From an uncultured Oscillibacter sp. (GTDB lineage: Bacteria; Bacillota; Clostridia; Oscillospirales; Oscillospiraceae): a DNA stretch of 9,597 nucleotides. Positions 1-9,597 of this stretch are shown here, piece after piece; within the stretch, counting starts at the first letter, position 1, and every line of letters starts with the position of its first letter. The notes under the pieces are model-generated. The model had not been told where the DNA came from. It worked only from the letters and a program-made list of their open reading frames with translations, and did no database searches. A program made the position numbers and the translations under genes. Location of the stretch: positions 1 to 9,597 of the forward strand of contig CAMNAE010000043.1 in the NCBI GenBank assembly GCA_946530565.1, in the 5' to 3' direction.

Positions 1-401
1 GCGTCGACGCGAAGGACGGCCTCGTCGCGGTCAACGGCTGGCTCGAGGAGAGCCGGGAATCAAGCTTCACGTTTTGTGAAAAGCTCCGCGATCTCGGCGT
101 GAAGACGGTCATCTATACCGACATCGCCAAGGACGGCATGCTCTCGGGCCCGAATCTCGAGGCCTACGGCCGCCTCGCGGAACTGAAGGGCCTCGACATC
201 GTCGCCTCCGGCGGCGTCAGCTCGATCGCGGACATCCGCGCCCTGCGCGCGCTCGGCATCCGCGGCGCGATCCTCGGCAAGGCGCTCTACGACGGCCGGC
301 TCGACCTCGGCATGTGCCTGCGCGAGGCCGGCGACGTCCCGCAGCGCTTCGACGACGATGAGGACGAAGAGCTCTACGGCGACATGCCGCTCATGCTTTA
401 A
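1..401 (+). CDS. hisA: Phosphoribosylformimino-5-aminoimidazole carboxamide ribotide isomerase, 3' part (HisA)
   Basis: This is the C-terminal half of HisA; the 5' end lies outside the window and the first complete codon is at position 3. HisA is a cytosolic TIM-barrel enzyme that performs the Amadori isomerisation of ProFAR to PRFAR in histidine biosynthesis. The visible part starts with VDAKDGLVAVNGW, whose first Asp matches the second catalytic Asp of the family. It continues with IYTDIAKDGMLSGPN (the conserved T-D strand), then VASGGVSS and GAILGKALYDG, which are the phosphate-binding ends of the last strands. The hisF gene follows, as expected for a his operon. An oddity is the tail after the barrel: about 22 residues rich in Asp/Glu (RFDDDEDEELYGD) beyond where most HisA proteins stop. 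The TAA stop is at 399-401. Identification is firm; the role of the tail is unknown. Confidence 0.96.
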   Translation, partial: VDAKDGLVAVNGWLEESRESSFTFCEKLRDLGVKTVIYTDIAKDGMLSGPNLEAYGRLAELKGLDIVASGGVSSIADIRALRALGIRGAILGKALYDGRLDLGMCLREAGDVPQRFDDDEDEELYGDMPLML

Positions 402-613
402 TTCACCTTTGAAGCTTTGCTTCAAAGGTGAGATACTCGCGCTTATCGCAGCGGGCTGCGCCCGCTTTGGTCGGCGCGAGAGCTCGCACAGCTCGCCTTG
501 CCGGTGTTTTTGCACCGGCAAAGCCGGGGCAAAAACGATTGAAATCGCCCTGCGGACGTTGTGAGAGTGGAGCGAATCACTCTCTATTTGCTTAAAACGG
601 GAGAAAAGTTGCC
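402..613. repeat. Hairpin-dense hisA-hisF spacer
   Basis: This 212-base gap holds no convincing gene but is packed with inverted repeats. Seen directly: a perfect 13-bp stem with 3-nt loop (403-415/419-431); an outer 7-bp stem CTCGCGC/GCGCGAG (436-442/474-480) enclosing GCGGGC/GCCCGC (451-456/460-465); GAGCT/AGCTC (480-484/490-494); TTGCCGGTG/CACCGGCAA (498-506/513-521); CGATT/AATCG (536-540/543-547); and GAGAGTG/CACTCTC (563-569/578-584). No T-tract follows any stem on the + strand, so a plain terminator is unlikely. Such gaps in Clostridia often consist of interspersed palindromic (REP/MITE-like) repeats; that reading is an inference. The hisF ribosome binding site (GGGAG, 599-603) lies just after the hairpins. 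Confidence 0.7.
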
Positions 614-1369
614 ATGCTTGCCAAACGCATCATTCCGTGCCTGGATATCAAAGACGGGAGAGTCGTGAAGGGCACGAACTTTCAGGGACTCCGCGAGGTC
701 GCGGACCCGGTGGAGCTCGCCCGCTTCTACTCCGGCGCCGGGGCCGATGAGCTCGTCTTCTACGACATCACGGCCTCCTACGAGGGCCGCGCGCTCTTTA
801 CCGACGTACTAAAGCGCGTCGCGGGCGAGGTCTTCATCCCGCTCACCGTCGGCGGCGGGATCCGCACGCTCGATGATTTCGACCGCGTCCTGAAATGCGG
901 GGCCGACAAGGTCTCGGTGAACTCCGGCGCGATCGCCGACCCGGGCCTGATCGGCGCGGCCGCGAAGCGCTACGGCGACCAGTGCGTCGTGCTCTCGATG
1001 GATGTAAAGCGCGTGGACGGGCAGTTCCGGCTCTTTGCCAAGGGCGGGCGTGAGGATACGGGCATCGACGCGCTCGCCTGGGCCGAGCGGGGCGCGGCCG
1101 CCGGCGCCGGCGAGATCGTTCTGAACTCGATCGACACCGACGGCGTCAGGCAGGGCTTTGATCTTGAGATGCTGGATGCCCTCGCCGCGCGGGTGAAGGT
1201 CCCGATCGTCGCGAGCGGCGGCGCCGGGAAGATCGGGGACTTCATCACGCTCTTTGCACACAAAGGCATCGACGCCGGCCTCGCCGCGAGCATCTTCCAC
1301 TCCCGCCAGGTGGAGATCGCGGAGCTCAAGCGCCAACTGCACGCCGCCGGCATCCCCGTGCGGCTGTGA
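614..1369 (+). CDS. hisF: Imidazole glycerol phosphate synthase cyclase subunit HisF
   Basis: HisF is the TIM-barrel cyclase of the HisH-HisF complex. It takes ammonia from the HisH glutaminase and PRFAR to make imidazole glycerol phosphate and AICAR, linking histidine and purine metabolism. At 251 residues it has the normal family length. The N-terminus reads MLAKRIIPCLDIKDGRVVKG, with catalytic Asp11. The second catalytic Asp is Asp130 in VVLSMDVKR. Phosphate-binding loops are visible as VGGGIR (79-84) and VASGGAGK near residue 200. It ends in the usual AELKRQLHAAGIPVR tail. The ATG start has GGGAG at 599-603, ten bases upstream. It sits between hisA and hisIE in operon orientation, but the flanking gaps are unusually long (212 and 226 bases) and full of palindromic repeats. 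hisH is not in the window and presumably lies upstream. Confidence 0.98.
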   Translation: MLAKRIIPCLDIKDGRVVKGTNFQGLREVADPVELARFYSGAGADELVFYDITASYEGRALFTDVLKRVAGEVFIPLTVGGGIRTLDDFDRVLKCGADKVSVNSGAIADPGLIGAAAKRYGDQCVVLSMDVKRVDGQFRLFAKGGREDTGIDALAWAERGAAAGAGEIVLNSIDTDGVRQGFDLEMLDALAARVKVPIVASGGAGKIGDFITLFAHKGIDAGLAASIFHSRQVEIAELKRQLHAAGIPVRL

Positions 1370-1376
1370 CCCCTGC

Positions 1377-1448
1377 CGCAGCCGCATAAGCCCCCATACT
1401 GCACTGCGCAACGTTTTGGACCCCTCAGTCGCAGCCGCATAAGCCCCC
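1377..1448. repeat. Two direct copies of a 19-bp motif
   Basis: The motif CGCAGCCGCATAAGCCCCC occurs at 1377-1395 and again at 1430-1448. Both copies are preceded by GACCCCT (1368-1374 and 1419-1425). The first lacks the CAGT that forms part of the inverted repeat in the second. The first copy is therefore best read as a truncated duplicate of the left end of the element at 1420-1522, and it begins inside the TGA of hisF. Confidence 0.8.
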
Positions 1449-1522
1449 CTGAAAGGGTTCGGTCCCCTCGTTTCGGCCCCCCTGAAAGGGAGGCTGGCAG
1501 CCCGAAGGGCTGACTGAGGGGT
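1420..1522. mobile_element. MITE-like palindromic element with 11-bp terminal inverted repeats
   Basis: The ends are ACCCCTCAGTC (1420-1430) and GACTGAGGGGT (1512-1522), perfect inverted repeats. Inside are two direct copies of a 15-bp motif GCCCCCCTGAAAGGG (1443-1457 and 1476-1490). There is also a hairpin CAGCCC-GAA-GGGCTG (1498-1512) that runs into the right end. The element is 103 bp and encodes no protein. CCCCTCAGTC/CCCTTTCAGGGG-type elements resemble interspersed repeats that I recall from Ruminococcaceae genomes; this is recognition from memory, not a search. It could be a non-autonomous transposable element or a REP-like structured repeat. No target-site duplication was established. 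Confidence 0.65.
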
Positions 1523-1581
1523 TTCTCTCCTCCGCGCACGCTATGACACAGAAGATACGCTTTTTGTAAATCTTTCGCACA

Positions 1582-1587
1582 AAGAGG
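1582..1587 (+). promoter_or_regulatory. Ribosome binding site that decides the hisIE start
   Basis: AAGAGG lies eight bases before the ATG at 1596. An in-frame GTG at 1587 overlaps this site, so the ATG is the better start. Confidence 0.75.
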
Positions 1588-1595
1588 TGTTCCCC

Positions 1596-2231
1596 ATGGA
1601 GCTCAAATTTGACGAAAAGGGCCTGATCCCCGCCATCGTGCAGGATCACTACAGCAAGCAGGTCCTGACCCTGGCCTACATGAACGCCGAGAGCCTCGCG
1701 CTCACGATCGCCGAGGGCCGCACGGTGTTCTTCAGCCGCAGCCGCCAGTGTCTCTGGCGCAAGGGCGAGGAGAGCGGCAACGTGCAGCACGTCGTCTCGA
1801 TCACGGCCGACTGCGACGCGGACGCGCTCGTTGTTGAGGTCGTAAAGGACGGCCCCGCCTGCCACACCGGCGCCGAGAGCTGCTTCTTCCAGCCGGTCTA
1901 TGTCTCCGAGGAGCTGCGGCAGTTCAGCTACGAGGGGCTCTATCAGCTGCTCAGGGGCCGTCTCACGGACCCGCAGGAGGGCAGCTACACGAGCTATCTC
2001 TTTGAAAAGGGGCTCGACAAGATCTTAAAGAAGGTCGGCGAGGAGTGCACCGAGGTCATCATCGCCGGGCGCAAGGAGGATAAAGAGGAGACGATCTACG
2101 AGATCGCGGACCTTGCCTATCATGTGATGGTTCTGATGGTGCAGCAGGGTATCACGCTTGAGGACATCGCGCGCGAGCTTGAAAAGCGCCACGTGATCGA
2201 CCACAAGGTCAAGCAGGAGCGCATGCAATGA
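1596..2231 (+). CDS. hisIE: Bifunctional phosphoribosyl-AMP cyclohydrolase / phosphoribosyl-ATP pyrophosphatase
   Basis: This cytosolic enzyme catalyses steps two and three of histidine synthesis: HisE removes pyrophosphate from PR-ATP and HisI opens the adenine ring of PR-AMP. HisI covers about residues 1-110. It shows [20 protein letters not shown], the acidic cluster DCDADAL (Asp72, Asp74, Asp76; Mg2+ ligands in the family) and [13 protein letters not shown], giving the zinc cysteines Cys73, Cys89 and Cys96. HisE covers about 114-200 and shows [24 protein letters not shown] and [13 protein letters not shown], the EE/E...D helical motifs of all-alpha NTP pyrophosphatases. The 211-residue length fits the fused form. 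The ATG at 1596 is preferred over an in-frame GTG at 1587 because the latter lies in the Shine-Dalgarno. The stop overlaps the next start in ATGA (2228-2231), suggesting translational coupling to the phosphatase gene. Confidence 0.97.
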
Positions 2232-3055
2232 TCCTGCGGCCCGAACACTGCTCGGTGCACACGCACTGCACGCTCTGCGACGGCAGGGCGACGGCCGCCG
2301 AGATGGCCGCCGCCGCGTATGCCGCAGGCGTACAGTACTTCGGCTTTTCCTGCCACTCCCCGACACCCTCCCCCTATGACGTCGGCTTCGTGCTGCCGGA
2401 CGACGTGACGGAATATCGCGCGACTGTCGCCGCGCTTCAAAAAGACTACGCCGGGCGCATGGAGATCCTCTGCGGCATCGAGCTGGACTCCACCTCTGCG
2501 CTGGCCCCCTCCGGCTTTGACTACTGGATCGGCTCGGTGCACTATCTGCGCGCTCCTGACGGCGCGTTTTACGCCGCGGACTGGGATGAAGAGCAGTTTC
2601 TCTCCGCGCGCGATCGGCTCTGCGGCGGCGACGCGCTCGCGGTGACGGAGCGGTATTTTGAAGCCGTCGGCGCCATGGCGGAGCGCAAGCCCACGATCCT
2701 CGGGCACATCGACCTCATCCGCAAGCTGAACCGCGGCGACCGGCTCTTCCCTGAATCGGATGCGCGCTATACCCGCGCCGCGCTCGGCGCGCTGCACCGG
2801 GCGGATCCCGAAAAAACGCTCCTTGAGATCAACACCGGCGGCATGCGCCGCGGCTACCGGGACACCCCCTACCCCGCGCTCTTTTTGCTGAAAGATTGGC
2901 GGGAGATGGGCGGTCGGATCATCCTGACCGCCGACGCGCACGACGCGGGCGGGATCGTCTACGCCTACGATGCCGCCGCTGAGATTGCAAGGGCCGCGGG
3001 CTTCAAAGAGGCGTCGCTCCTGACTGCCTCCGGCGAGGTCCCCTGCGCGCTCTAA
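2228..3055 (+). CDS. hisK: Histidinol-phosphatase, PHP family
   Basis: This is the PHP-type histidinol-phosphatase (called hisK or hisJ in Firmicutes), which dephosphorylates L-histidinol phosphate and is unrelated to the HAD-type HisB enzyme. Metal-binding motifs of the PHP fold are in order: [11 protein letters not shown] (His11, His13, Asp18), FSCHSP (His43), CGIELD (Glu85), GSVHYL (His105), GHIDLIRK (His160) and [11 protein letters not shown] (Asp236, His238). The length of 275 residues is typical. The ATG overlaps the hisIE stop by four bases, and its AGGAG (2215-2219) lies inside hisIE. It closes the visible his operon. Downstream is a large palindrome and a convergent two-component operon. 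Membership of the his pathway rests on both motif set and context. Substrate specificity within the PHP family is inferred. Confidence 0.93.
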
Positions 3056-3212: not shown

Positions 3213-3827
3213 TCATTTCAGATACCTTCGGATGTCGCCGCGCTTTTCGAGGCCCATTTTCTCCTTGACGACGCCTACCAGCTTCTTGGTGTAGGGCATG
3301 GAGATATTCAGCATCTCCGAGATCTCCCGGTCGGAGCGGAACTGTGCCATCAGCCCGGCGACGTCTGATTCCCGGCCGGTCAGGGGCTCCAGAAGGGCGG
3401 AAAGCTTTTTTTCATCCAGGATCCCGGCGCCGCTGCGGGCCGCTGTCAGGTTCAGGTAGTGCCGGAGGCGCAGCAGCAGCACACGCATTCCGACCGGCTT
3501 TTTGAGGTAATCCAGCACATTCTGCGAAAGCCCCTTCAGTTCCTCCTGCTCGTCCGTAAGGCCGGTCAGGAACACCACCGGGATCTTCCTGAGCGCTTCC
3601 TCCGCCTCCAGTCGATCCAGCACTTCATAGCCGTTCATCCCTGGCATGCTGATATCCAAAAGGATCAAGTCGGGGAGCGACGGCCCTGCGGAGCCTTTCA
3701 ATAAGGCCAGAGCCGATTCTCCCGAATCCGCCGTCAGCACATCGTAAAAGGGCTGCAGCGCCTCTTGCATCATCGCCAGCGTCCCATGGTCGTCATCCAC
3801 GATCAGGATCCTGTTTCTTGCCTCCAT
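3213..3827 (-). CDS. Response regulator, REC plus LuxR/GerE-type helix-turn-helix
   Basis: This 204-residue cytosolic transcription regulator is the likely output of the adjacent hybrid kinase. The REC domain (about 5-122) has the acidic pocket Asp11-Asp13 (ILIVDDD), phospho-acceptor Asp58 (LILLDISMPG), Thr88 (VVFLTGL) and Lys110-Pro111 (YLKKPVG). The C-terminal region (about 147-204) starts LTGRESDVAGLMAQFRSDRE, continues EISEMLNIS and ends near KEKMGLEKRGDIRRYL. This matches the LuxR/GerE pattern (LTxRExxVL...IAexLxis..TVK.H...i..KLg), although the recognition helix (SMPYTKKLVGVVKEKM) is divergent. The start has GAAGGG six bases upstream and lies 15 bases after the kinase stop, so the two are co-transcribed. 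I infer that it binds the GTATAC boxes at 6112-6174. No specific gene name can be assigned. Confidence 0.92.
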   Translation of the reverse strand: MEARNRILIVDDDHGTLAMMQEALQPFYDVLTADSGESALALLKGSAGPSLPDLILLDISMPGMNGYEVLDRLEAEEALRKIPVVFLTGLTDEQEELKGLSQNVLDYLKKPVGMRVLLLRLRHYLNLTAARSGAGILDEKKLSALLEPLTGRESDVAGLMAQFRSDREISEMLNISMPYTKKLVGVVKEKMGLEKRGDIRRYLK

Positions 3828-3842
3828 GTCATTCCCTTCTCT

Positions 3843-6038
3843 TCATGCGTCCGGTGCCGCTTTCTGACCGAATACCTCCAGCGCTTCCAGCAGCAGCGCC
3901 TCCCCCCGGCCGACCGTGTCGTACTCCGCGCTCAGAACGGGAAGCGTCAGCGTGAGCAGCGCCGTCTCATCCCGGTGCCGTTCCATATATGCGCAAAGCG
4001 CCGCAAGGTCTCTTGCCCCGATGCCTTTCGCGGCCGCTTTCAGGGTGTGGACAAAGTGGAAGAGCGCATCTTCCGCGATCGCCGCCCCGCCGCTGCCGCC
4101 GGAGGCGGCGGCCCCGCTCAGGCTATATAGCTCCTCTTTGAAGCGGAGGAAATGCTCCGCCCGCATCCGGAGATTGTCGACGGAACCGCCGTCAAGCTCC
4201 AGGGCGTCCTCCAGGTGGATATGGCACGGAAGGAGCCGTTCGGAAAGCTTCGCCTGCTCTTCCTCCGGGAGCTTGCGGAAGGAGGGGTCCCGGACCAGAC
4301 GGACCCGTTCCCCGAGCTGACGCATCAGCATTTCCCCGATCTCCCGCATGCTGACAGGCTTTGCAAGGTAGTCCGCAAAGCCCTCATGGATCAGTTTTTC
4401 CCTTGTGCCCGCAAGGGCGTCCGCGGTCAGGGCGACCACGGGGGTCTCAAGCTCCGGATGCTCCTCCCGGATCCGGCGCAGCGTCTCTCTGCCGTCCATC
4501 TCCGGCATCATGATATCCATGAAGATCAGGTCATAGTCCCGGATCTCCAGCATTTCCAGCGCTTCCCTGCCGCTTTCCACATCGTCGGTGCGGATCAGCG
4601 TGGGTTTTAAGAGATCGCACATGACCTGCCGGTTGAATTCGTTGTCATCGACCACCAATATCCTGACGTCCGGCGCCAGGATGCTGGCGAAGGGCTCCGT
4701 TCTGGGCGAGACCGAAGACCAGTCGCTCCTCTGGCCGACGGACGCGGGATCCTGCACCCGCTGCGGGATGCGGACGGTGAAGCGGCTGCCCTTCCCGGGC
4801 GCGCTCTCACAGCGCACCGTCCCCTGCATCTCCTCCGCCAGATCCTTCACGATGGCAAGGCCGAGGCCCGTGCCCTCGTAGCTGCCCGAGGACTGCAGGG
4901 CTCCGCGCTCGAAGGGGAGAAAGACCCGCTCGAGATCCTCCGGGGCAATGCCGATGCCGCTGTCCTCCACCTCGATCCGGAGCACGATGTCGCGCCCGGC
5001 GTCCTCCCGCAGAAAGCGCAGCGTGACGCCGCCCCGGTCCGTGTATTTCACGGCGTTCCCGGCGAGGTTGTTGACGATCTTCCGGATGGCCTCCACGTTT
5101 CCCAACATAACGGACGGAAGCGACTCCTCCGCCTCCAGCCGGAAGGAAAGTCCGGCTCGTCTTGCGCTGTCCTTCCACATGGTCTCGCTTTCCTTTAAAA
5201 GCTGCGCCGTCAGATACGGCGCCTCCGGAAGCCGCATCCTGCCGGATTCGATCCGGGAGATGTCCAGGATGTCCTCGATCAGGGAAAGCAGGATCCTGCA
5301 GGAGATGCGGATGTTGTCGGTCCAGCCGCGGATCTCATCGGAGACCGTGCGTTCCGCGATCAGCTCATTCATGGAGATCACGGTGTTGAGGGGCGTGCGG
5401 ATGTCGTGGCTCATGTTGGCAAGAAAGGCCGTTTTCGCCTCACTGGCGGAGAGCGCCTCCTGCCGCGCCCGGTCCAGCTCCTCCTGCTTGCTGCGGTTCA
5501 AGCGCAGCTGCAGATACATGGTAACGGCCAGGGCCGCGGAGACCACCGGCAGGGCGATGAGGATGTCCGTCAGGATCTTCCGCTCGTCCGTAAAGGGGTG
5601 CACCGCCTCCGGATGCCTGTAGGCCGCAAGGCAGAGGAAGCTGTACCAGCAGACCTCGGCCAGGACGAAGACCGGCATCTGCGGCCCTTCCAGCATAAAG
5701 GCGGTAAAGACCACCGCCAGGATGAAATAAAGCGGCATGCCGCCCTTGTAGCCCCCGCCGGAGAAGAACAGCGCGGTGAAGGCGAGGAAAAAGACCAGCA
5801 CGATGGTGAGCATCATGGACAGGCGGTATTTCCCGCTCCGGGCCGCATACACGAGGAGGATGAGCGCCAGAAGCGCCGCGCCCCAGCAGAGCAGGGTGTT
5901 CAGGAGCGGAAGACCCAGGATGAAGTTGAGGGCGCCCGCGATCAGGCTCACGATGACGCCGCCGGTCCCGAGGATCCGGAAGAGCCGGATCCGAAGCTCC
6001 GATGTATTGTCCGATTCGGCAGCAGTAATATTTTTCAT
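3843..6038 (-). CDS. Membrane-bound hybrid sensor histidine kinase with REC and HPt domains
   Basis: Using the ATG at 6038 the protein has 731 residues. The N-terminal third has about six hydrophobic segments (roughly 22-42, 45-64, 74-93, 101-117, 120-140, 156-176) and no large external loop, so the signal is probably sensed in or near the membrane. A basic, polar linker (RLNRSKQEELDRARQEA) leads to HisKA with FLANMSHDIRTPLNT (His211). The HATPase shows the N box NNLAGNAVKYTD (Asn328), G1 EDSGIGI and G2 EGTGLGLAIVK. The receiver domain (about 457-576) contains RILVVDDNEFNRQ, Asp508 in LIFMDIMMPEMDG, and YLAKPVSM. The C-terminus has an HPt module with FVHTLKAAAKGIGA (His664). Phosphate should thus pass His211-Asp508-His664 and then to Asp58 of the regulator encoded 15 bases downstream. 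The input signal is unknown. A GTG-initiated form from 6086 is possible but less likely. Confidence 0.93.
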   Translation of the reverse strand: MKNITAAESDNTSELRIRLFRILGTGGVIVSLIAGALNFILGLPLLNTLLCWGAALLALILLVYAARSGKYRLSMMLTIVLVFFLAFTALFFSGGGYKGGMPLYFILAVVFTAFMLEGPQMPVFVLAEVCWYSFLCLAAYRHPEAVHPFTDERKILTDILIALPVVSAALAVTMYLQLRLNRSKQEELDRARQEALSASEAKTAFLANMSHDIRTPLNTVISMNELIAERTVSDEIRGWTDNIRISCRILLSLIEDILDISRIESGRMRLPEAPYLTAQLLKESETMWKDSARRAGLSFRLEAEESLPSVMLGNVEAIRKIVNNLAGNAVKYTDRGGVTLRFLREDAGRDIVLRIEVEDSGIGIAPEDLERVFLPFERGALQSSGSYEGTGLGLAIVKDLAEEMQGTVRCESAPGKGSRFTVRIPQRVQDPASVGQRSDWSSVSPRTEPFASILAPDVRILVVDDNEFNRQVMCDLLKPTLIRTDDVESGREALEMLEIRDYDLIFMDIMMPEMDGRETLRRIREEHPELETPVVALTADALAGTREKLIHEGFADYLAKPVSMREIGEMLMRQLGERVRLVRDPSFRKLPEEEQAKLSERLLPCHIHLEDALELDGGSVDNLRMRAEHFLRFKEELYSLSGAAASGGSGGAAIAEDALFHFVHTLKAAAKGIGARDLAALCAYMERHRDETALLTLTLPVLSAEYDTVGRGEALLLEALEVFGQKAAPDA

Positions 6039-6045
6039 GAAGCTT

Positions 6046-6050
6046 ACCTC
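6046..6050 (-). promoter_or_regulatory. Ribosome binding site that decides the kinase start
   Basis: GAGGT on the - strand sits seven bases before the ATG at 6038. The in-frame GTG at 6086 has no comparable site and would fall only just upstream of the predicted - strand -10 element, so the ATG is chosen. Confidence 0.75.
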
Positions 6051-6076
6051 AACAGCAGATGATCCCTTTTGACCTG

Positions 6077-6085
6077 ATGATAGCA
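6077..6085 (-). promoter_or_regulatory. Putative extended -10 promoter for the kinase-regulator operon
   Basis: On the - strand TGCTATCAT forms an extended -10 element (hexamer 6082 to 6077). No good -35 is present at the expected distance. A weak promoter core with an upstream activator box (6112-6125) suggests positive control. The predicted start of transcription is near 6070. Confidence 0.5.
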
Positions 6086-6111
6086 CACCCGAGCCGGGAG
6101 CACAGGATGCG

Positions 6112-6125
6112 AAAAGTATACTCTT
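6112..6125. promoter_or_regulatory. Candidate operator box 1 (AGTATACT core)
   Basis: AAAAGTATACTCTT contains the 8-bp palindrome AGTATACT (6115-6122). It is the exact inverse of box 2 at 6161-6174. Its centre (6118.5) is 36.5 bp from the edge of the - strand -10 hexamer. That corresponds to roughly -48.5 from the predicted start of the kinase transcript, directly upstream of the -35 region. Confidence 0.65.
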
Positions 6126-6127
6126 TT

Positions 6128-6146
6128 CGTTTTTCAGTGAAAAACG
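6128..6146. promoter_or_regulatory. 19-bp palindrome between the two operator boxes
   Basis: CGTTTTTC-AGT-GAAAAACG is a perfect inverted repeat with 8-bp arms and a 3-bp centre. It lies between the AGTATACT boxes, with its centre at 6137, six bases off the symmetry axis. It may be a second regulator's site, or a structural element between the divergent promoters. It lacks the flanking T-tract expected of a terminator. Confidence 0.5.
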
Positions 6147-6160
6147 GTTCCGATCACCAT

Positions 6161-6174
6161 AAGAGTATACTTTT
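6161..6174. promoter_or_regulatory. Candidate operator box 2 (AGTATACT core)
   Basis: AAGAGTATACTTTT is the exact reverse complement of box 1, with its core AGTATACT at 6164-6171. Its centre (6167.5) is 36.5 bp before the edge of the + strand -10 hexamer at 6204, again about -48.5 from the predicted start. The most obvious candidate to bind it is the LuxR-type regulator encoded nearby; this is an inference from proximity and symmetry. Confidence 0.65.
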
Positions 6175-6203
6175 GGTATGTATTTTTCAAGAACAGAAGC
6201 TCC

Positions 6204-6209
6204 TATAAT
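6204..6209 (+). promoter_or_regulatory. -10 element of the surface-protein promoter
   Basis: A consensus TATAAT, with transcription expected to start near 6216 and a leader of about 50 bases. The region 17 bp upstream (6181-6186, TATTTT) is a poor -35, so activation from box 2 is plausible. Just downstream the leader has a tandem 8-bp repeat, AGATTCTC twice (6217-6232). Confidence 0.6.
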
Positions 6210-6264
6210 GATTCATAGATTCTCAGATTCTCAGACGAGCCAATGAGTCAAAGGAGATGATCCA

Positions 6265-9200
6265 ATGCGAGCAAAGGAAACAATCGGCCGCAAAAGGAGG
6301 AGCGGCGGAGCGCTCGGGGGCAGGCTGCCCTCTTTCATGGCGCTTGCCCTGGCTGTGACCCTGCTGCCGGGCCTTCTGAGCTTTGCGACGGCAGGAGCCA
6401 AGGCCGCGGAAGCGGAACCGGGCGGCGCTGCAGGCGAGATCTACACGTCCTACACCGTGGACGCAGGGACCTCATCGCACTGGGGCGACGGGTATTACGG
6501 CTATCTGCTCGACGGCGACCCCGCCACGAAATGGGGCTGCGAGATCCACGAAACGCTGTTCATCGAATTCCACAGCGCGGAGGCGATCACGCCTGAGGCA
6601 TACATTCTGACGACAGGCCACGATACGGCAAATTACGCGCACCGCAACCCCAAAGACTGGTGCATCAAAGCGAAGAAAAACGCCGCGGACGACTGGACGA
6701 CCATCGCGGCGGTCACGGGCGATACGACGCTGCAGGCGGTCAATTCGCAGGACTGCGAATTCGGTCTCGACGTCAAAAACGCCGCCTGGCAGTATTTCCG
6801 CTTTGAGGTGAGCAAGACCGGCAGCGGAGAGTTTCAGCTCGCCGAGCTGCGGTTCCGGCTCGCCTCACAGCTCGACCCGCTCGATCTTAAAAACGCCTCC
6901 GTGAGCGGCCTTTCGTCCGACTATGTCTATACGGGCAGCGAGATCGAGCCCGCCTGCAGCGTAACGGCAGCGGACGGGACCGCGTTGACCAGGGGCAGTG
7001 ATTATACGCTCAGCATCTCCCCGTCGCCCGTCCGGGAACCCGGCAGCTATACGCTGACGCTCACCGGCGCGGGGCGCTATACGGGAACAAAGACCGCTTC
7101 GTTCACTGTGCGCGCAGCGACGGTGGATATTTCCGACCTCGGAACGCAGGATCTGGTCTTTTACTGGAAGAACGGGAGCTCTGCGGTCCAATGGCGCGTG
7201 ATCTCCCCCGCGGGCGACGTGAAGCTCCCCGACAGCAGCGCCGCGGATGAAATTCTGCTGCTCTCGAACAGCGGCACCTACGCCAAGTTCGACGAGGACG
7301 GTTCGAACGCCTGGAAGGGCAGCGACGCGCAGAATCAATGCGTCGCGCTGTATGACGCCCATACCGACGCCGTCGAGCGGGCCGCGCTCCGGACGACGAC
7401 CATTACGGAAACCGAAAGTTACGCCGGTTTCGACCCGACATCGGTGGAAGGCGAGCACTTCTTCCTGCTCTCCGCCAGGGAATCCGAGACCTATTTTACC
7501 GACAGTCAGGATCGCTCCGCGTTCTTTTTGAGTCACTGGTACCTTCGCTCGGCCTATCCGACTTATGCGGATCTGATCGGCGTGGTAAAAGAGGGCGGCG
7601 ACTGGGCGGACGCGGGCAAAGTGAGCTATGCCAGCCCATTGGAGTGGTCAAACATACGGCCCGCCTGCAATCTCGATCCGGCGCGCGTTGTGATGGTGAG
7701 CCCCTCAAGCGGCGATCCGGGCACTTCCGGCCAGATCGCGGCGTTCCCGGAAAATCCGAATCGGATGTGGCGGCTGACCCTTCTGGACGACGCACGCAGC
7801 GGCTTTTCCGTAGCGGAGAGCGCTTTGGAGACCTCGGCCGGCGGTACGGTGAGCGTTTCCTACAGCGGCGCGCAGTACGGAGCGCAGGAATACCTGACGG
7901 TGCTGCTCTTCGACGCAGACGGCGGAGCCCTCGGCTGGGGCAGAGTGGGGCCGCTGACGTCCGCAGACGGCACGGCGCGGTTCACCCTTCCGGAGACCCT
8001 GCAGCCGGGGAGCTATACGCTCAAGCTGCTCAACGAACGCAAGGGCGAGGGATACTGCTCGAACGCGGCCGGCGCTTTTCGCAGCGTTGCGCTGACGGTC
8101 AACGCAAAGCCGGTGCTTAAGGTGCAGGCGGAAGACCTGACCGTGACCTACAGCGGCGCGGACGTGCCGGATGACGCCATCCTCGGCACGGCGACCTCTG
8201 CTGGAGAAAGCATTCAGGGGAAATGGTCCTTCGCCTCCGGCCAGACGCGCAAAAACGTCTCCGACAGCGGCGTAAAGCAGGTGATCTTTACCCCGGACGA
8301 CACCGCGACCTTCGAGCCCTTCCTGACCACGCTGACGCTCACGATCGAGCCGAAGGAGGTCACGGTCGTGCCGGACTCGCTATCAAAGCATGTGGGAGAG
8401 CCGGACCCCGCGCTGACCGCGACCGTCACCGGCCTTTGCGGCTCCGACACGATCGAGTATACGCTGACGCGCGACGCGGGCGAAACACCTAATACTTTTT
8501 ATGCGATTCGCGCCTCAGGCGCGACCCAACAGGGCAACTATCGCGTTTCGTATCCAACAACAGTCGGTAGGTTTAGGATCGTTGGCCACAGCCCCAGAGC
8601 GACCCGGGCCGTGCCCGCGGGCTGCGAGACAGAGGGCAGCAGCGCGTACTGGACCTGCGCGGTCTGCGGCAAGTTCTTCTCCGACGAAAGCTGCACGGCC
8701 GAGATCGCGGCGGACAGCTGGGTCATCCCGGCGCTCGGCCACAAGCCGGGCACGGCGCAGCGCGAGAACGAGGAGGCGGCGACCTGCACGGAAGGCGGCG
8801 GCTATGATGAGGTCGTGTACTGCGGCGCCTGCAGCAAGGAGCTCAGCCGCGAGCGCAAGACGATCCCGGCGCTCGGCCACGCCTACGGCACGCCGGACTA
8901 TGAATGGGCCGCCGACAATACGGCCGTGACCGCGCAGGCAGTCTGCGCGCATGACGCAGCGCACGTGATCGAAGAGACCGTATCAACGACCTACGCCGAG
9001 ACCACCCCCGCGACCGAAAACGCTACGGGCATCGGCACCTGGACGGCGGCCTTTACAAACACGCACTTCAAGACCCAGACGAAGCAGGTCGTCATCCCCC
9101 AACTCATCCACGTCCACAGCCTTGTAAAGACCGAAGCCATCCCCGCCGGCTGTGAGACAGAGGGCAGGAGCGCATACTGGAAATGCAGCGGCTGCTATAA

Positions 9201-9597
9201 ATACTTCTCAGACGCCGCCGGCACGACCGAGATCGCCGCAAACAGCTGGTCCATCCCCGCCACGGGCCACACGCCCGGCGCGGAGCAGCGCAGAAATGAG
9301 ACGGCGGCGAAGTGCACGGTAGACGGCGGCTATGATACGGTCGTGAGCTGCAGCAGCTGCGGCCTGGTGCTCAGCCGCACGCATATAACGATCCCGGCCA
9401 CCGGCCACACGCCGGGAGATCCGCAGCGTGAAAACGAGATCCCGGCGACCTGCAGGGCGGAGGGCAAGTATGATGCGGTCGTGTACTGCAGCACCTGCAA
9501 TCAGGAGCTCAGCCGCGAGCGCACGACGATCCCCGTGCTCGGCCACAGCTACGGCACGCCGGAATACACCTGGGCCGCGGACAACACGACCGTGACT
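6265..9597 (+). CDS. Large secreted multi-domain surface protein, 3' end beyond window
   Basis: An open frame of 1111 codons starts at ATG 6265, with AGGAG at 6252-6256 eight bases upstream, and is still open at the window edge. Residues 1-47 form a signal peptide: basic n-region (GRKRR), hydrophobic FMALALAVTLLPGLLSFATA, and AxA-type cleavage near residues 43-47. Residues 58-199 resemble an F5/8 type C (discoidin) carbohydrate-binding domain (YLLDGDPATKWG, YFRFEVSKTG, FQLAELRF). An Ig-like domain follows (200-285; VYTGSEIEPACSV, GSYTLTLTGAGRYTGT). Residues about 293-480 look like a DUF6273 domain (VQWRVISP, FLLSARES, WYLRSAYP, WSNIRPACNLDP). Next come a beta-sandwich region (about 497-613) and an MBG-like region (616-773; VPDSLSKHVGEPDPAL). 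From 775 there are cysteine repeats. It probably sits on the cell surface and may bind glycans. No anchor is seen because the C-terminus is missing. Domain names are from pattern memory. Confidence 0.9.
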   Translation, partial: MRAKETIGRKRRSGGALGGRLPSFMALALAVTLLPGLLSFATAGAKAAEAEPGGAAGEIYTSYTVDAGTSSHWGDGYYGYLLDGDPATKWGCEIHETLFIEFHSAEAITPEAYILTTGHDTANYAHRNPKDWCIKAKKNAADDWTTIAAVTGDTTLQAVNSQDCEFGLDVKNAAWQYFRFEVSKTGSGEFQLAELRFRLASQLDPLDLKNASVSGLSSDYVYTGSEIEPACSVTAADGTALTRGSDYTLSISPSPVREPGSYTLTLTGAGRYTGTKTASFTVRAATVDISDLGTQDLVFYWKNGSSAVQWRVISPAGDVKLPDSSAADEILLLSNSGTYAKFDEDGSNAWKGSDAQNQCVALYDAHTDAVERAALRTTTITETESYAGFDPTSVEGEHFFLLSARESETYFTDSQDRSAFFLSHWYLRSAYPTYADLIGVVKEGGDWADAGKVSYASPLEWSNIRPACNLDPARVVMVSPSSGDPGTSGQIAAFPENPNRMWRLTLLDDARSGFSVAESALETSAGGTVSVSYSGAQYGAQEYLTVLLFDADGGALGWGRVGPLTSADGTARFTLPETLQPGSYTLKLLNERKGEGYCSNAAGAFRSVALTVNAKPVLKVQAEDLTVTYSGADVPDDAILGTATSAGESIQGKWSFASGQTRKNVSDSGVKQVIFTPDDTATFEPFLTTLTLTIEPKEVTVVPDSLSKHVGEPDPALTATVTGLCGSDTIEYTLTRDAGETPNTFYAIRASGATQQGNYRVSYPTTVGRFRIVGHSPRATRAVPAGCETEGSSAYWTCAVCGKFFSDESCTAEIAADSWVIPALGHKPGTAQRENEEAATCTEGGGYDEVVYCGACSKELSRERKTIPALGHAYGTPDYEWAADNTAVTAQAVCAHDAAHVIEETVSTTYAETTPATENATGIGTWTAAFTNTHFKTQTKQVVIPQLIHVHSLVKTEAIPAGCETEGRSAYWKCSGCYKYFSDAAGTTEIAANSWSIPATGHTPGAEQRRNETAAKCTVDGGYDTVVSCSSCGLVLSRTHITIPATGHTPGDPQRENEIPATCRAEGKYDAVVYCSTCNQELSRERTTIPVLGHSYGTPEYTWAADNTTVT
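8587..9597 (+). repeat. Modular cysteine repeats within the surface protein (order A-B-C-A-B-B-C)
   Basis: Three unit types alternate, each ending in a short I-P-x-x-G/I-H motif. Type A (about 52 residues) is at 8587-8742 and 9112-9270, with shared PAGCETEG, SAYW, CxxC, FSD and EIAA. Type B (46 residues) is at 8743-8880, 9271-9408 and 9409-9546, with a single Cys, GGYD or GKYD, V-V, then CxxC and L-S-R. Type C (77 residues) is at 8881-9111 and 9547-9597 (cut by the edge), with YGTP.Y.WAADN. Every A and B unit follows C-x10 or x11-C-x2-C ... G-H. This could be a metal site or a disulfide pattern. Similar units occur in giant surface proteins of gut Clostridia as far as I recall; their function is not known to me. 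Confidence 0.85.

What the first reader, a model, noticed from the sequence alone, without database searches (positions are those of the whole stretch)
6077..6209. Mirror-symmetric divergent promoter region with paired AGTATACT boxes
Two perfect inverted 14-bp boxes (6112-6125, 6161-6174) have their midpoint at 6143. The + strand TATAAT begins at 6204 and the - strand TATCAT begins at 6082; these two positions also mirror exactly about 6143. Each box is centred 36.5 bp from its own -10, and both promoters have poor -35 hexamers. This geometry is hard to get by chance and suggests one activator driving both the kinase-regulator operon and the surface-protein gene, with the adjacent LuxR-type regulator as the obvious candidate.
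Basis: partly seen in the sequence, partly recalled or inferred. Interest (0 to 1): 0.72.

Follow-up and report, generated by a model that had tools for sequence, protein, structure and literature searches.

The report
Two-way self-activating promoter with twin boxes
Between a sensor-kinase/regulator gene pair and a gene for a predicted surface protein lie two matching palindromic boxes, each 32 bases from its own promoter-like TATAAT-type signal, and the same layout recurs in a related bacterium beside a different gene; the pair's own regulator likely binds the boxes and would switch on both itself and the surface gene.

Summary
The decisive result is a genome of another genus in the same family (G186). 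A scan for paired AGTATACT and a separate kinase search met at one place, where both cores again sit exactly 32 nt from a TATAAT, while the box-to-box distance is 38 instead of 49 bp. In 400 family genomes, AGTATACTTTTSG-N27-TATMAT occurs without mismatch four times: both promoters of both kinase loci. The divergent gene differs: surface protein here, unrelated lipoprotein in G186. A third, distant system (G390) has a different LuxR-type domain and a different box, found within 2 mismatches only before its kinase and before a linked lipoprotein gene. The simplest reading is a dedicated operator of the adjacent NarL/FixJ-type regulator, activating its own operon and one exported protein. Binding and activation are inferred, not shown. 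The layout resembles Bordetella bvgAS-fhaB. The core AGTATACT has been proposed in print for another regulator, Enterococcus BsrR, where it overlaps a -10.

The parts
6112..6125 (-). Box 1 (kinase-side operator), AAGAGTATACTTTT read on the - strand; palindromic core 6115-6122
   Evidence: 12 of 14 dyad matches here, 14 of 14 at the G186 counterpart
6161..6174 (+). Box 2 (surface-gene-side operator), AAGAGTATACTTTT; palindromic core 6164-6171
   Evidence: counterpart in G186 at L160:9144-9157
6077..6085 (-). Kinase-operon extended -10: TGC-TATCAT (TATCAT 6082-6077)
   Evidence: TGT-TATAAT at the same 32-nt distance from the core in G186
6204..6209 (+). Surface-gene -10, TATAAT
   Evidence: TATAAT at the same 32-nt distance from the core in G186
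6083..6114 (-). Kinase-side spacer between core and -10; begins TTTCGCATCCTGTG
   Evidence: 23 of 32 positions identical in G186; no -35 hexamer
6172..6203 (+). Surface-side spacer between core and -10; begins TTTGGTAT
   Evidence: 20 of 32 positions identical in G186; no -35 hexamer
6123..6163 (.). Inter-core spacer, 41 nt; contains a local inverted repeat 6128-6146
   Evidence: 30 nt and without evident similarity in G186: 11 bp shorter
3843..6038 (-). Hybrid histidine kinase (HisKA, HATPase, receiver, sub-threshold Hpt; membrane N-terminus by eye), ATG at 6038
   Evidence: Pfam; ortholog in G186
3213..3827 (-). Response regulator of NarL/FixJ kind (receiver + LuxR-type HTH), 15 nt downstream of the kinase; proposed binder of the boxes
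6265..9597 (+). Predicted surface protein (signal peptide by eye, weak F5/8 discoidin-like match, MBG domain); runs off the contig
   Evidence: Pfam

Best explanation
The twin palindromes are likely the operators of the adjacent LuxR-type response regulator, which when phosphorylated by the hybrid kinase would bind one box upstream of each divergent promoter and activate both the kinase-regulator operon (positive feedback) and the predicted surface-protein gene. Shown from sequence: both boxes and both -10 hexamers exist at a fixed 32-nt core-to-(-10) distance; this is kept at the orthologous locus of another genus while the distance between the boxes is not; none of the four promoters has a recognisable -35; the full module is otherwise absent without mismatch from 400 family genomes. 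Inferred: that the regulator is the binder; that it activates rather than represses (each box would lie about -55 to -42 from the predicted start, upstream of the core promoter, and no -35 is seen); and that each box acts on its own promoter, the 11-bp change in box spacing being roughly one helical turn. The target gene appears exchangeable.
For: Two separate searches meet at G186:C21: paired AGTATACT (7 of 400 genomes including the own) and kinase at E<=1e-110 (4 of 400 including the own). Identical core-to-(-10) distance on all four promoters, box spacing 49 versus 38 bp. Module AGTATACTTTTSG-N27-TATMAT: 4 zero-mismatch hits in 400 genomes, all at the two kinase loci. No other module within 3 mismatches in the own genome. 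HTH more conserved than receiver: mean pairwise identity 81% versus 62% over 33 hand-picked regulators; ISMPYTKKLV identical in 25 of those 33, the other 8 differing at one position. In G390 a different HTH (17 of 55 identical to the window's) goes with a different 15-bp dyad found, within 2 mismatches, only before the kinase and before a linked lipoprotein gene. NarL/FixJ-type architecture.
Against: No binding, transcription-start or expression data. Only two loci share this exact box; DNA of the closer protein relatives could not be fetched. At up to 2 mismatches the module is no commoner than background: 30 of 400 genomes hit, against about 49 (hand count) for the reversed control, whose mismatch numbers are not given. 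The G390 dyad search also had 2 reversed-control hits. The G186 regulator frame has an in-frame TAG in its receiver domain, so it may be non-functional or mis-assembled. In G390 the box-to-(-10) distance is about 6 bp shorter. GerE is below Pfam's cut-off, and OmpR-type structures also match the model, PrrA with the higher TM. The kinase-side extended -10 could work without an activator. In Enterococcus the same core was proposed as a site of a different regulator, overlapping a -10.
Confidence: 0.73

Rival explanations
1. The boxes are operators of the same regulator but it represses one or both promoters, for example by bridging the two boxes into a loop.
For: Two palindromic sites 49 or 38 bp apart, an 11-bp difference close to one helical turn, would suit co-operative binding on one face; the kinase promoter has an extended -10 that may need no activator.
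Against: The boxes lie upstream of, not over, the proposed core promoters in all four cases; no -35 in either species; what is strictly kept is the box-to-(-10) distance, as expected for contact with polymerase. Only two loci inform on the spacing.
Confidence: 0.13
2. The boxes bind some other, unlinked dimeric regulator (for example a GntR-, MarR- or PadR-type protein).
For: AGTATACT is a short perfect dyad of a kind bound by several families (recalled, no call); GerE is sub-threshold; the same core was proposed for an Enterococcus regulator, BsrR (PMC6522849, section 17 read).
Against: Module without mismatch only at the kinase loci and not elsewhere in the own genome within 3 mismatches, unlike a regulon of an unlinked factor; the box differs where the linked HTH differs.
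Confidence: 0.1
3. AGTATACT is not an operator but a pair of back-to-back -10 hexamers (TATACT on both strands).
For: The scan finds TTTTCA-17-TATACT on the - strand at 6143-6115 (mean 0.4 in shuffles). In Enterococcus the published motif TMGAGTATAMTA begins 5 bp before the -10, so its TATACT is that -10.
Against: At the G186 counterpart the best -35 for that reading has 2 of 6 matches, and no box there has more than 3 of 6; conservation extends over AAAA/TTTT arms and to a second -10 at fixed distance; the G390 counterpart box has no TATA.
Confidence: 0.04

Closest known systems
Bordetella bvgAS-fhaB divergon
   Same: A kinase plus NarL/FixJ-type regulator operon transcribed divergently from a large surface adhesin gene: in the B. 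bronchiseptica cluster fhaB lies between the divergently transcribed bvgAS and the fim operon (PMC2225982, passages). Inverted-repeat regulator sites upstream of fhaB. The hybrid HK-receiver-Hpt layout of BvgS, the NarL type of BvgA and bvgAS autoregulation are recalled.
   Different: No homology claimed beyond the families. fhaB has several heptad sites (in B. holmesii the one centred at -47.5 is the poorest match and a construct with it alone was virtually inactive) versus one 14-bp palindrome per promoter here; plain membrane sensor by eye, not Venus flytraps; BvgAS runs a large regulon, this one appears private. In B. holmesii and B. avium fhaB is not beside bvgAS either.
LiaR/VraR operators (cell-envelope stress, Firmicutes)
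   Same: Regulators of the same structural kind (one search lists VraR); dyad site upstream of the promoter: LiaR protects -76 to -52 of PliaI and its motif is T(X)4C(X)4G(X)4A (PMC7191749, passages).
   Different: AAAAGTATACTTTT does not match that motif; nearer to the -10; hybrid kinase here.
Enterococcus BsrXRS and its putative site TMGAGTATAMTA
   Same: Two-component regulator thought to control its own operon; the predicted site contains the same AGTATACT core in 6 of 7 listed strains (PMC6522849, section 17 read).
   Different: Site predicted by motif search; the gel shift used the whole 143-bp region; it overlaps the -10 instead of lying 32 nt upstream; single, not paired; the paper's passages do not name the regulator's family (its ~230-residue DNA-binding domain suggests OmpR type, my inference).
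Staphylococcal agr P2/P3 divergent promoters (recalled)
   Same: One response regulator drives two divergent promoters from paired sites, including its own operon.
   Different: AgrA is a LytTR regulator binding direct repeats; target is a regulatory RNA; peptide signal.

Membership tests
NarL/FixJ (LuxR-type) response regulators | N-terminal receiver with conserved acidic pocket and lysine | tested here: met
   Response_reg 81.5 bits; D11-D13, D58, K109 invariant in 34 rows
NarL/FixJ (LuxR-type) response regulators | C-terminal LuxR-type four-helix HTH | tested here: met
   Profile matches over receiver and HTH to StyR (3-194), VraR (4-197) and NarL (5-198) chains; helices 151-161, 166-173, 177-191, 196-202. 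Against: GerE 18.9 bits, below the 23.5 cut-off; fold matches to FixJ, DesR, LiaR, VraR, NarL have whole-protein TM of only about 0.45-0.55 and OmpR-type proteins are in the same list, PrrA at 0.65
NarL/FixJ (LuxR-type) response regulators | Binds dyad DNA as a dimer | not testable with these tools
   needs footprinting; a 14-bp dyad is present beside its operon
bvgAS-fhaB-type divergon | Hybrid kinase + NarL-type regulator operon divergent from a surface protein gene | tested here: met
   (Hpt below its cut-off; surface location predicted)
bvgAS-fhaB-type divergon | Regulator activates both divergent promoters | not testable with these tools
   inferred from box position and missing -35s
bvgAS-fhaB-type divergon | Several regulator sites per promoter and a large unlinked regulon (regulon recalled) | tested here: not met
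   one box per promoter; no further module within 3 mismatches in the assembled 69%
LiaR/VraR operator | T(X)4C(X)4G(X)4A motif | tested here: not met
   by eye against the motif quoted in PMC7191749
Standard sigma-70/sigma-A promoters | -10 hexamer with a -35 hexamer 15-19 nt upstream | tested here: not met
   -10s present; -35 at most 2 of 6 (window) or 3 of 6 (G186)

The most novel reading that the evidence does not exclude
A portable regulatory cassette: a phosphorelay kinase, a regulator with a nearly frozen DNA-reading helix and a rigid two-way promoter form one unit that moves between Clostridia-like bacteria, keeps its 32-nt box-to-start geometry, tolerates box-to-box changes in whole helical turns, and plugs in different exported proteins on the open side; across its wider family the operator code co-evolves with the helix.
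Probability: 0.35. Interest if true: 0.72.

Novelty: new member of a known kind. Interest (0 to 1): 0.5.

Why it matters
For most two-component systems known only from genome bins the operator is unknown. Here sequence alone gives a concrete operator, its geometry and a candidate regulator. That regulator has 651 relatives at E<=1e-10, of which 120 were listed and some may share only the receiver; named relatives are labelled Clostridium, Eubacterium, Stomatobaculum or Lachnospiraceae. If right, one footprint would calibrate many of them, and the promoter would be a testable case of a conserved switch whose output gene changes.

Tried and rejected
Regulon search in the own genome: the 14-mer with up to 2 mismatches gives three exact sites, two being the boxes and one (C155:4738) in an open frame at a contig end; on the side the contig still covers there is AGATCT, not a -10, at the right distance, and on the other side only 21 bases remain. 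The weaker hits (C139, C201, C41, C144) are unpaired (genes looked at only for C139). With the -10 included there is no further site within 3 mismatches. G186:C6:37051 (2 mismatches) lies just after a TTGACA/TATAAT promoter in front of an L10-like gene (by eye) and looks incidental. One exact module in the viral collection lies inside a glycosyltransferase-like frame (by eye): taken as chance.

Kinase relatives at 30-41% in the own genus, the other families of the order and genome contigs: within the fetched flanks only the window, G186 and G390 carry a full-length regulator of this kind; L058 and L091 gave weak matches. The sister species of G186 lacks the kinase at E<=1e-110, as do 85 other genomes of the own genus; 286 other family genomes of at least 95% completeness lack it at E<=1e-105. 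These searches score only the best few candidates per genome. G264 (34%) lacks the core and its contig ends after the kinase. Regulator searches in the viral and plasmid collections gave only receiver-level matches. Terminator reading of box 1 rejected: no predicted gene reads into it. The inner repeat 6128-6146 is not seen in G186.

Literature: AGTATACT is in 240 papers, 20 listed; of these I opened two for passages. PMC7253601 (CopY operators) holds it only incidentally. PMC6522849 proposes TMGAGTATAMTA for BsrR, which I had missed at first; I therefore dropped the claim that the core is undescribed, raised the -10 rival from 0.03 to 0.04 and lowered the main reading from 0.74 to 0.73. AGTATACTTTT is in 8 papers, seen as titles and abstract starts, none on a bacterial operator by title. 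A search combining this regulator type with Lachnospiraceae found none. Searches were listings. The remaining 220 papers were not seen.

Full report
What was checked. The boxes, hexamers and symmetry are exactly as described. Each box is a 14-bp near-palindrome around AGTATACT; the core is 32 nt from its own -10 on both sides. Dinucleotide shuffles of 6039-6264 gave a 14-mer direct or inverted repeat in 3 of 5000, and shuffled flanks gave a mirrored pair of 5-of-6 -10s in 5 of 5000. The tests were framed after the pattern was seen.

Genes. The window is a contig of a 1.83-Mb genome bin, 69% complete, in 306 contigs. Leftward lie a hybrid histidine kinase (HisKA, HATPase, receiver; Hpt at 22.1 bits, below its cut-off of 24.6; ATG at 6038) and, 15 nt later, a response regulator; rightward a predicted exported protein with an MBG domain and a weak F5/8-like match that runs off the contig. 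The regulator is NarL/FixJ-like: its alignment profile matches StyR, VraR and NarL over receiver and HTH, although the best scores in that search are receiver-only matches. The model (mean pLDDT 86) shows four helices in the HTH region. FixJ, DesR, LiaR, VraR and NarL are among the fold matches with TM about 0.45-0.55, but so are OmpR-type regulators, PrrA at 0.65. Pfam GerE alone is sub-threshold.

Conservation test. Two searches were run on 400 genomes of the family (the handles shown agree). Paired AGTATACT with a 26-56-nt gap hit 7 genomes including the own. The kinase at E<=1e-110 hit 4 including the own. They meet at G186:C21, where the pair lies just upstream of a kinase 62-63% identical. 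Aligned, the G186 region keeps box 2 and GGTAT, box 1 and CGCATCCTGTG, and both -10s, now TATAAT on both sides. Core-to-(-10) distance is 32 nt in all four promoters; identity in the spacers is 23 of 32 (kinase side) and 20 of 32 (other side). The cores are 49 bp apart in the window and 38 bp in G186, with no evident similarity between them. In G186 both boxes are perfect 14-bp palindromes, AAAAGTATACTTTT. The other five genomes with AGTATACT pairs (G168, G321, G091, G240, G285) had no kinase at that threshold, and the genes around their pairs were not studied.

Specificity. AGTATACTTTTSG-N27-TATMAT with up to 2 mismatches gave 34 matches in 30 of 400 genomes: 4 with no mismatch, 1 with one (G148), 29 with two. 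The reversed control hit about 49 genomes by my hand count, so the two-mismatch hits are background; the call does not say how many control hits were free of mismatches. The four perfect hits are both promoters of both kinase loci. In the own genome there is no third module within 3 mismatches and no control hit. About 30% of the own genome is missing, so a small regulon cannot be excluded.

Promoter anatomy. No -35 better than 2 of 6 (window) or 3 of 6 (G186) at spacers of 15-19 nt; the kinase-side -10 is extended (TGN) in both species. The boxes would sit at about -55 to -42 from a start 7 nt past the -10, upstream of the core promoter (inference). This favours activation over repression. 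Reading the box itself as a -10 finds a 4-of-6 -35 only at one box and strand of the window and at most 3 of 6 in G186.

Who binds. The regulator has 651 relatives at E<=1e-10, 120 listed. I aligned the window regulator, 32 of those 120 (chosen by hand for spread) and the G390 regulator. Leaving G390 out, mean pairwise identity is 62% in the receiver and 81% in the HTH; ISMPYTKKLV is identical in 25 of 33 and off by one residue in the other 8. Between the window and G186 the identity is 64% for the N-terminal piece and 77% for the C-terminal piece. Seventeen contig lengths recur between the kinase list and the regulator list, matched by eye, which hints that the two genes are often linked; this is indirect. 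G390 has a kinase 41% identical, a regulator with a different HTH (17 of 55 identical) and a linked lipoprotein gene downstream. It shows GTAACCGTTAGTGAC before the kinase and before the lipoprotein, and nowhere else in that genome within 2 mismatches; the reversed control also gave 2 hits. There the box lies 22 and 23 nt from a -10-like hexamer, a different geometry. Same wiring with a different box and a different HTH is the best available evidence that the linked regulator reads the box.

Output gene. The gene on the open side is not conserved: window surface protein versus G186 lipoprotein, BLASTP E 1.6; the G186 and G390 lipoproteins are only weakly alike (E 0.03). All three look exported (signal peptide or lipobox by eye).

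Against. Two loci only for the exact box; no wet data; the G186 regulator frame has an in-frame TAG, so that locus may be decaying or mis-assembled; the kinase is absent at E<=1e-110 from 85 other genomes of the genus, so it is patchy, or the bin is mixed.

Known relatives. The layout closely resembles bvgAS-fhaB (passages of PMC2225982; BvgS domain order, BvgA type and autoregulation recalled), but it is not filed there: one box per promoter and no regulon found. LiaR's motif (PMC7191749 passages) does not match. The core itself is in print as a predicted site of Enterococcus BsrR, TMGAGTATAMTA, where it overlaps the -10 and where the gel shift used a whole 143-bp region (PMC6522849, section 17 read). 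I file the window as a new member of a known kind: an autoregulated NarL/FixJ phosphorelay with a divergent exported target and a predicted 14-bp operator, AAAAGTATACTTTT, at a fixed distance from the -10.

Noticed in passing
L160:11536-12146 (G186): The regulator frame of G186 carries an in-frame TAG in the receiver domain, with a downstream GTG-started frame holding the whole HTH.
   Followed up: partly
L161:6452-6466 and 9661-9675 (G390): A 15-bp dyad GTAACCGTTAGTGAC occurs only twice in the G390 genome within 2 mismatches: before the kinase and before a linked lipoprotein gene.
   Followed up: yes
L167:1450-1560 (G186:C6): AGTATACTTTTCG directly after a TTGACA/TATAAT promoter in the leader of an L10-like ribosomal protein gene.
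   Followed up: partly
window 6128-6146: Local inverted repeat CGTTTTTCA-G-TGAAAAACG between the two boxes; not seen in G186.
   Followed up: partly
window 3-3055: Histidine biosynthesis genes by eye (hisA end, hisF, hisI/E) followed by a PHP-domain protein, convergent with the kinase operon.
   Followed up: no
L073 (G091:C8:72406-72447): A near-perfect long palindrome bounded by AGTATACT on both ends, possibly a transposon end or hairpin.
   Followed up: no
L070, L071 (G321, G168): The same 46-bp AGTATACT pair, identical in two species of one genus, with unknown context.
   Followed up: no
L160:7370-9046 (G186): Lipoprotein-like protein with a long Asp/Tyr-rich (DDYYDD) tail beside the box pair.
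   Followed up: partly
PMC6522849, table 2 (literature): The Enterococcus BsrR motif TMGAGTATAMTA may simply be a conserved TATACT -10, since it starts 5 bp before the stated -10.
   Followed up: partly
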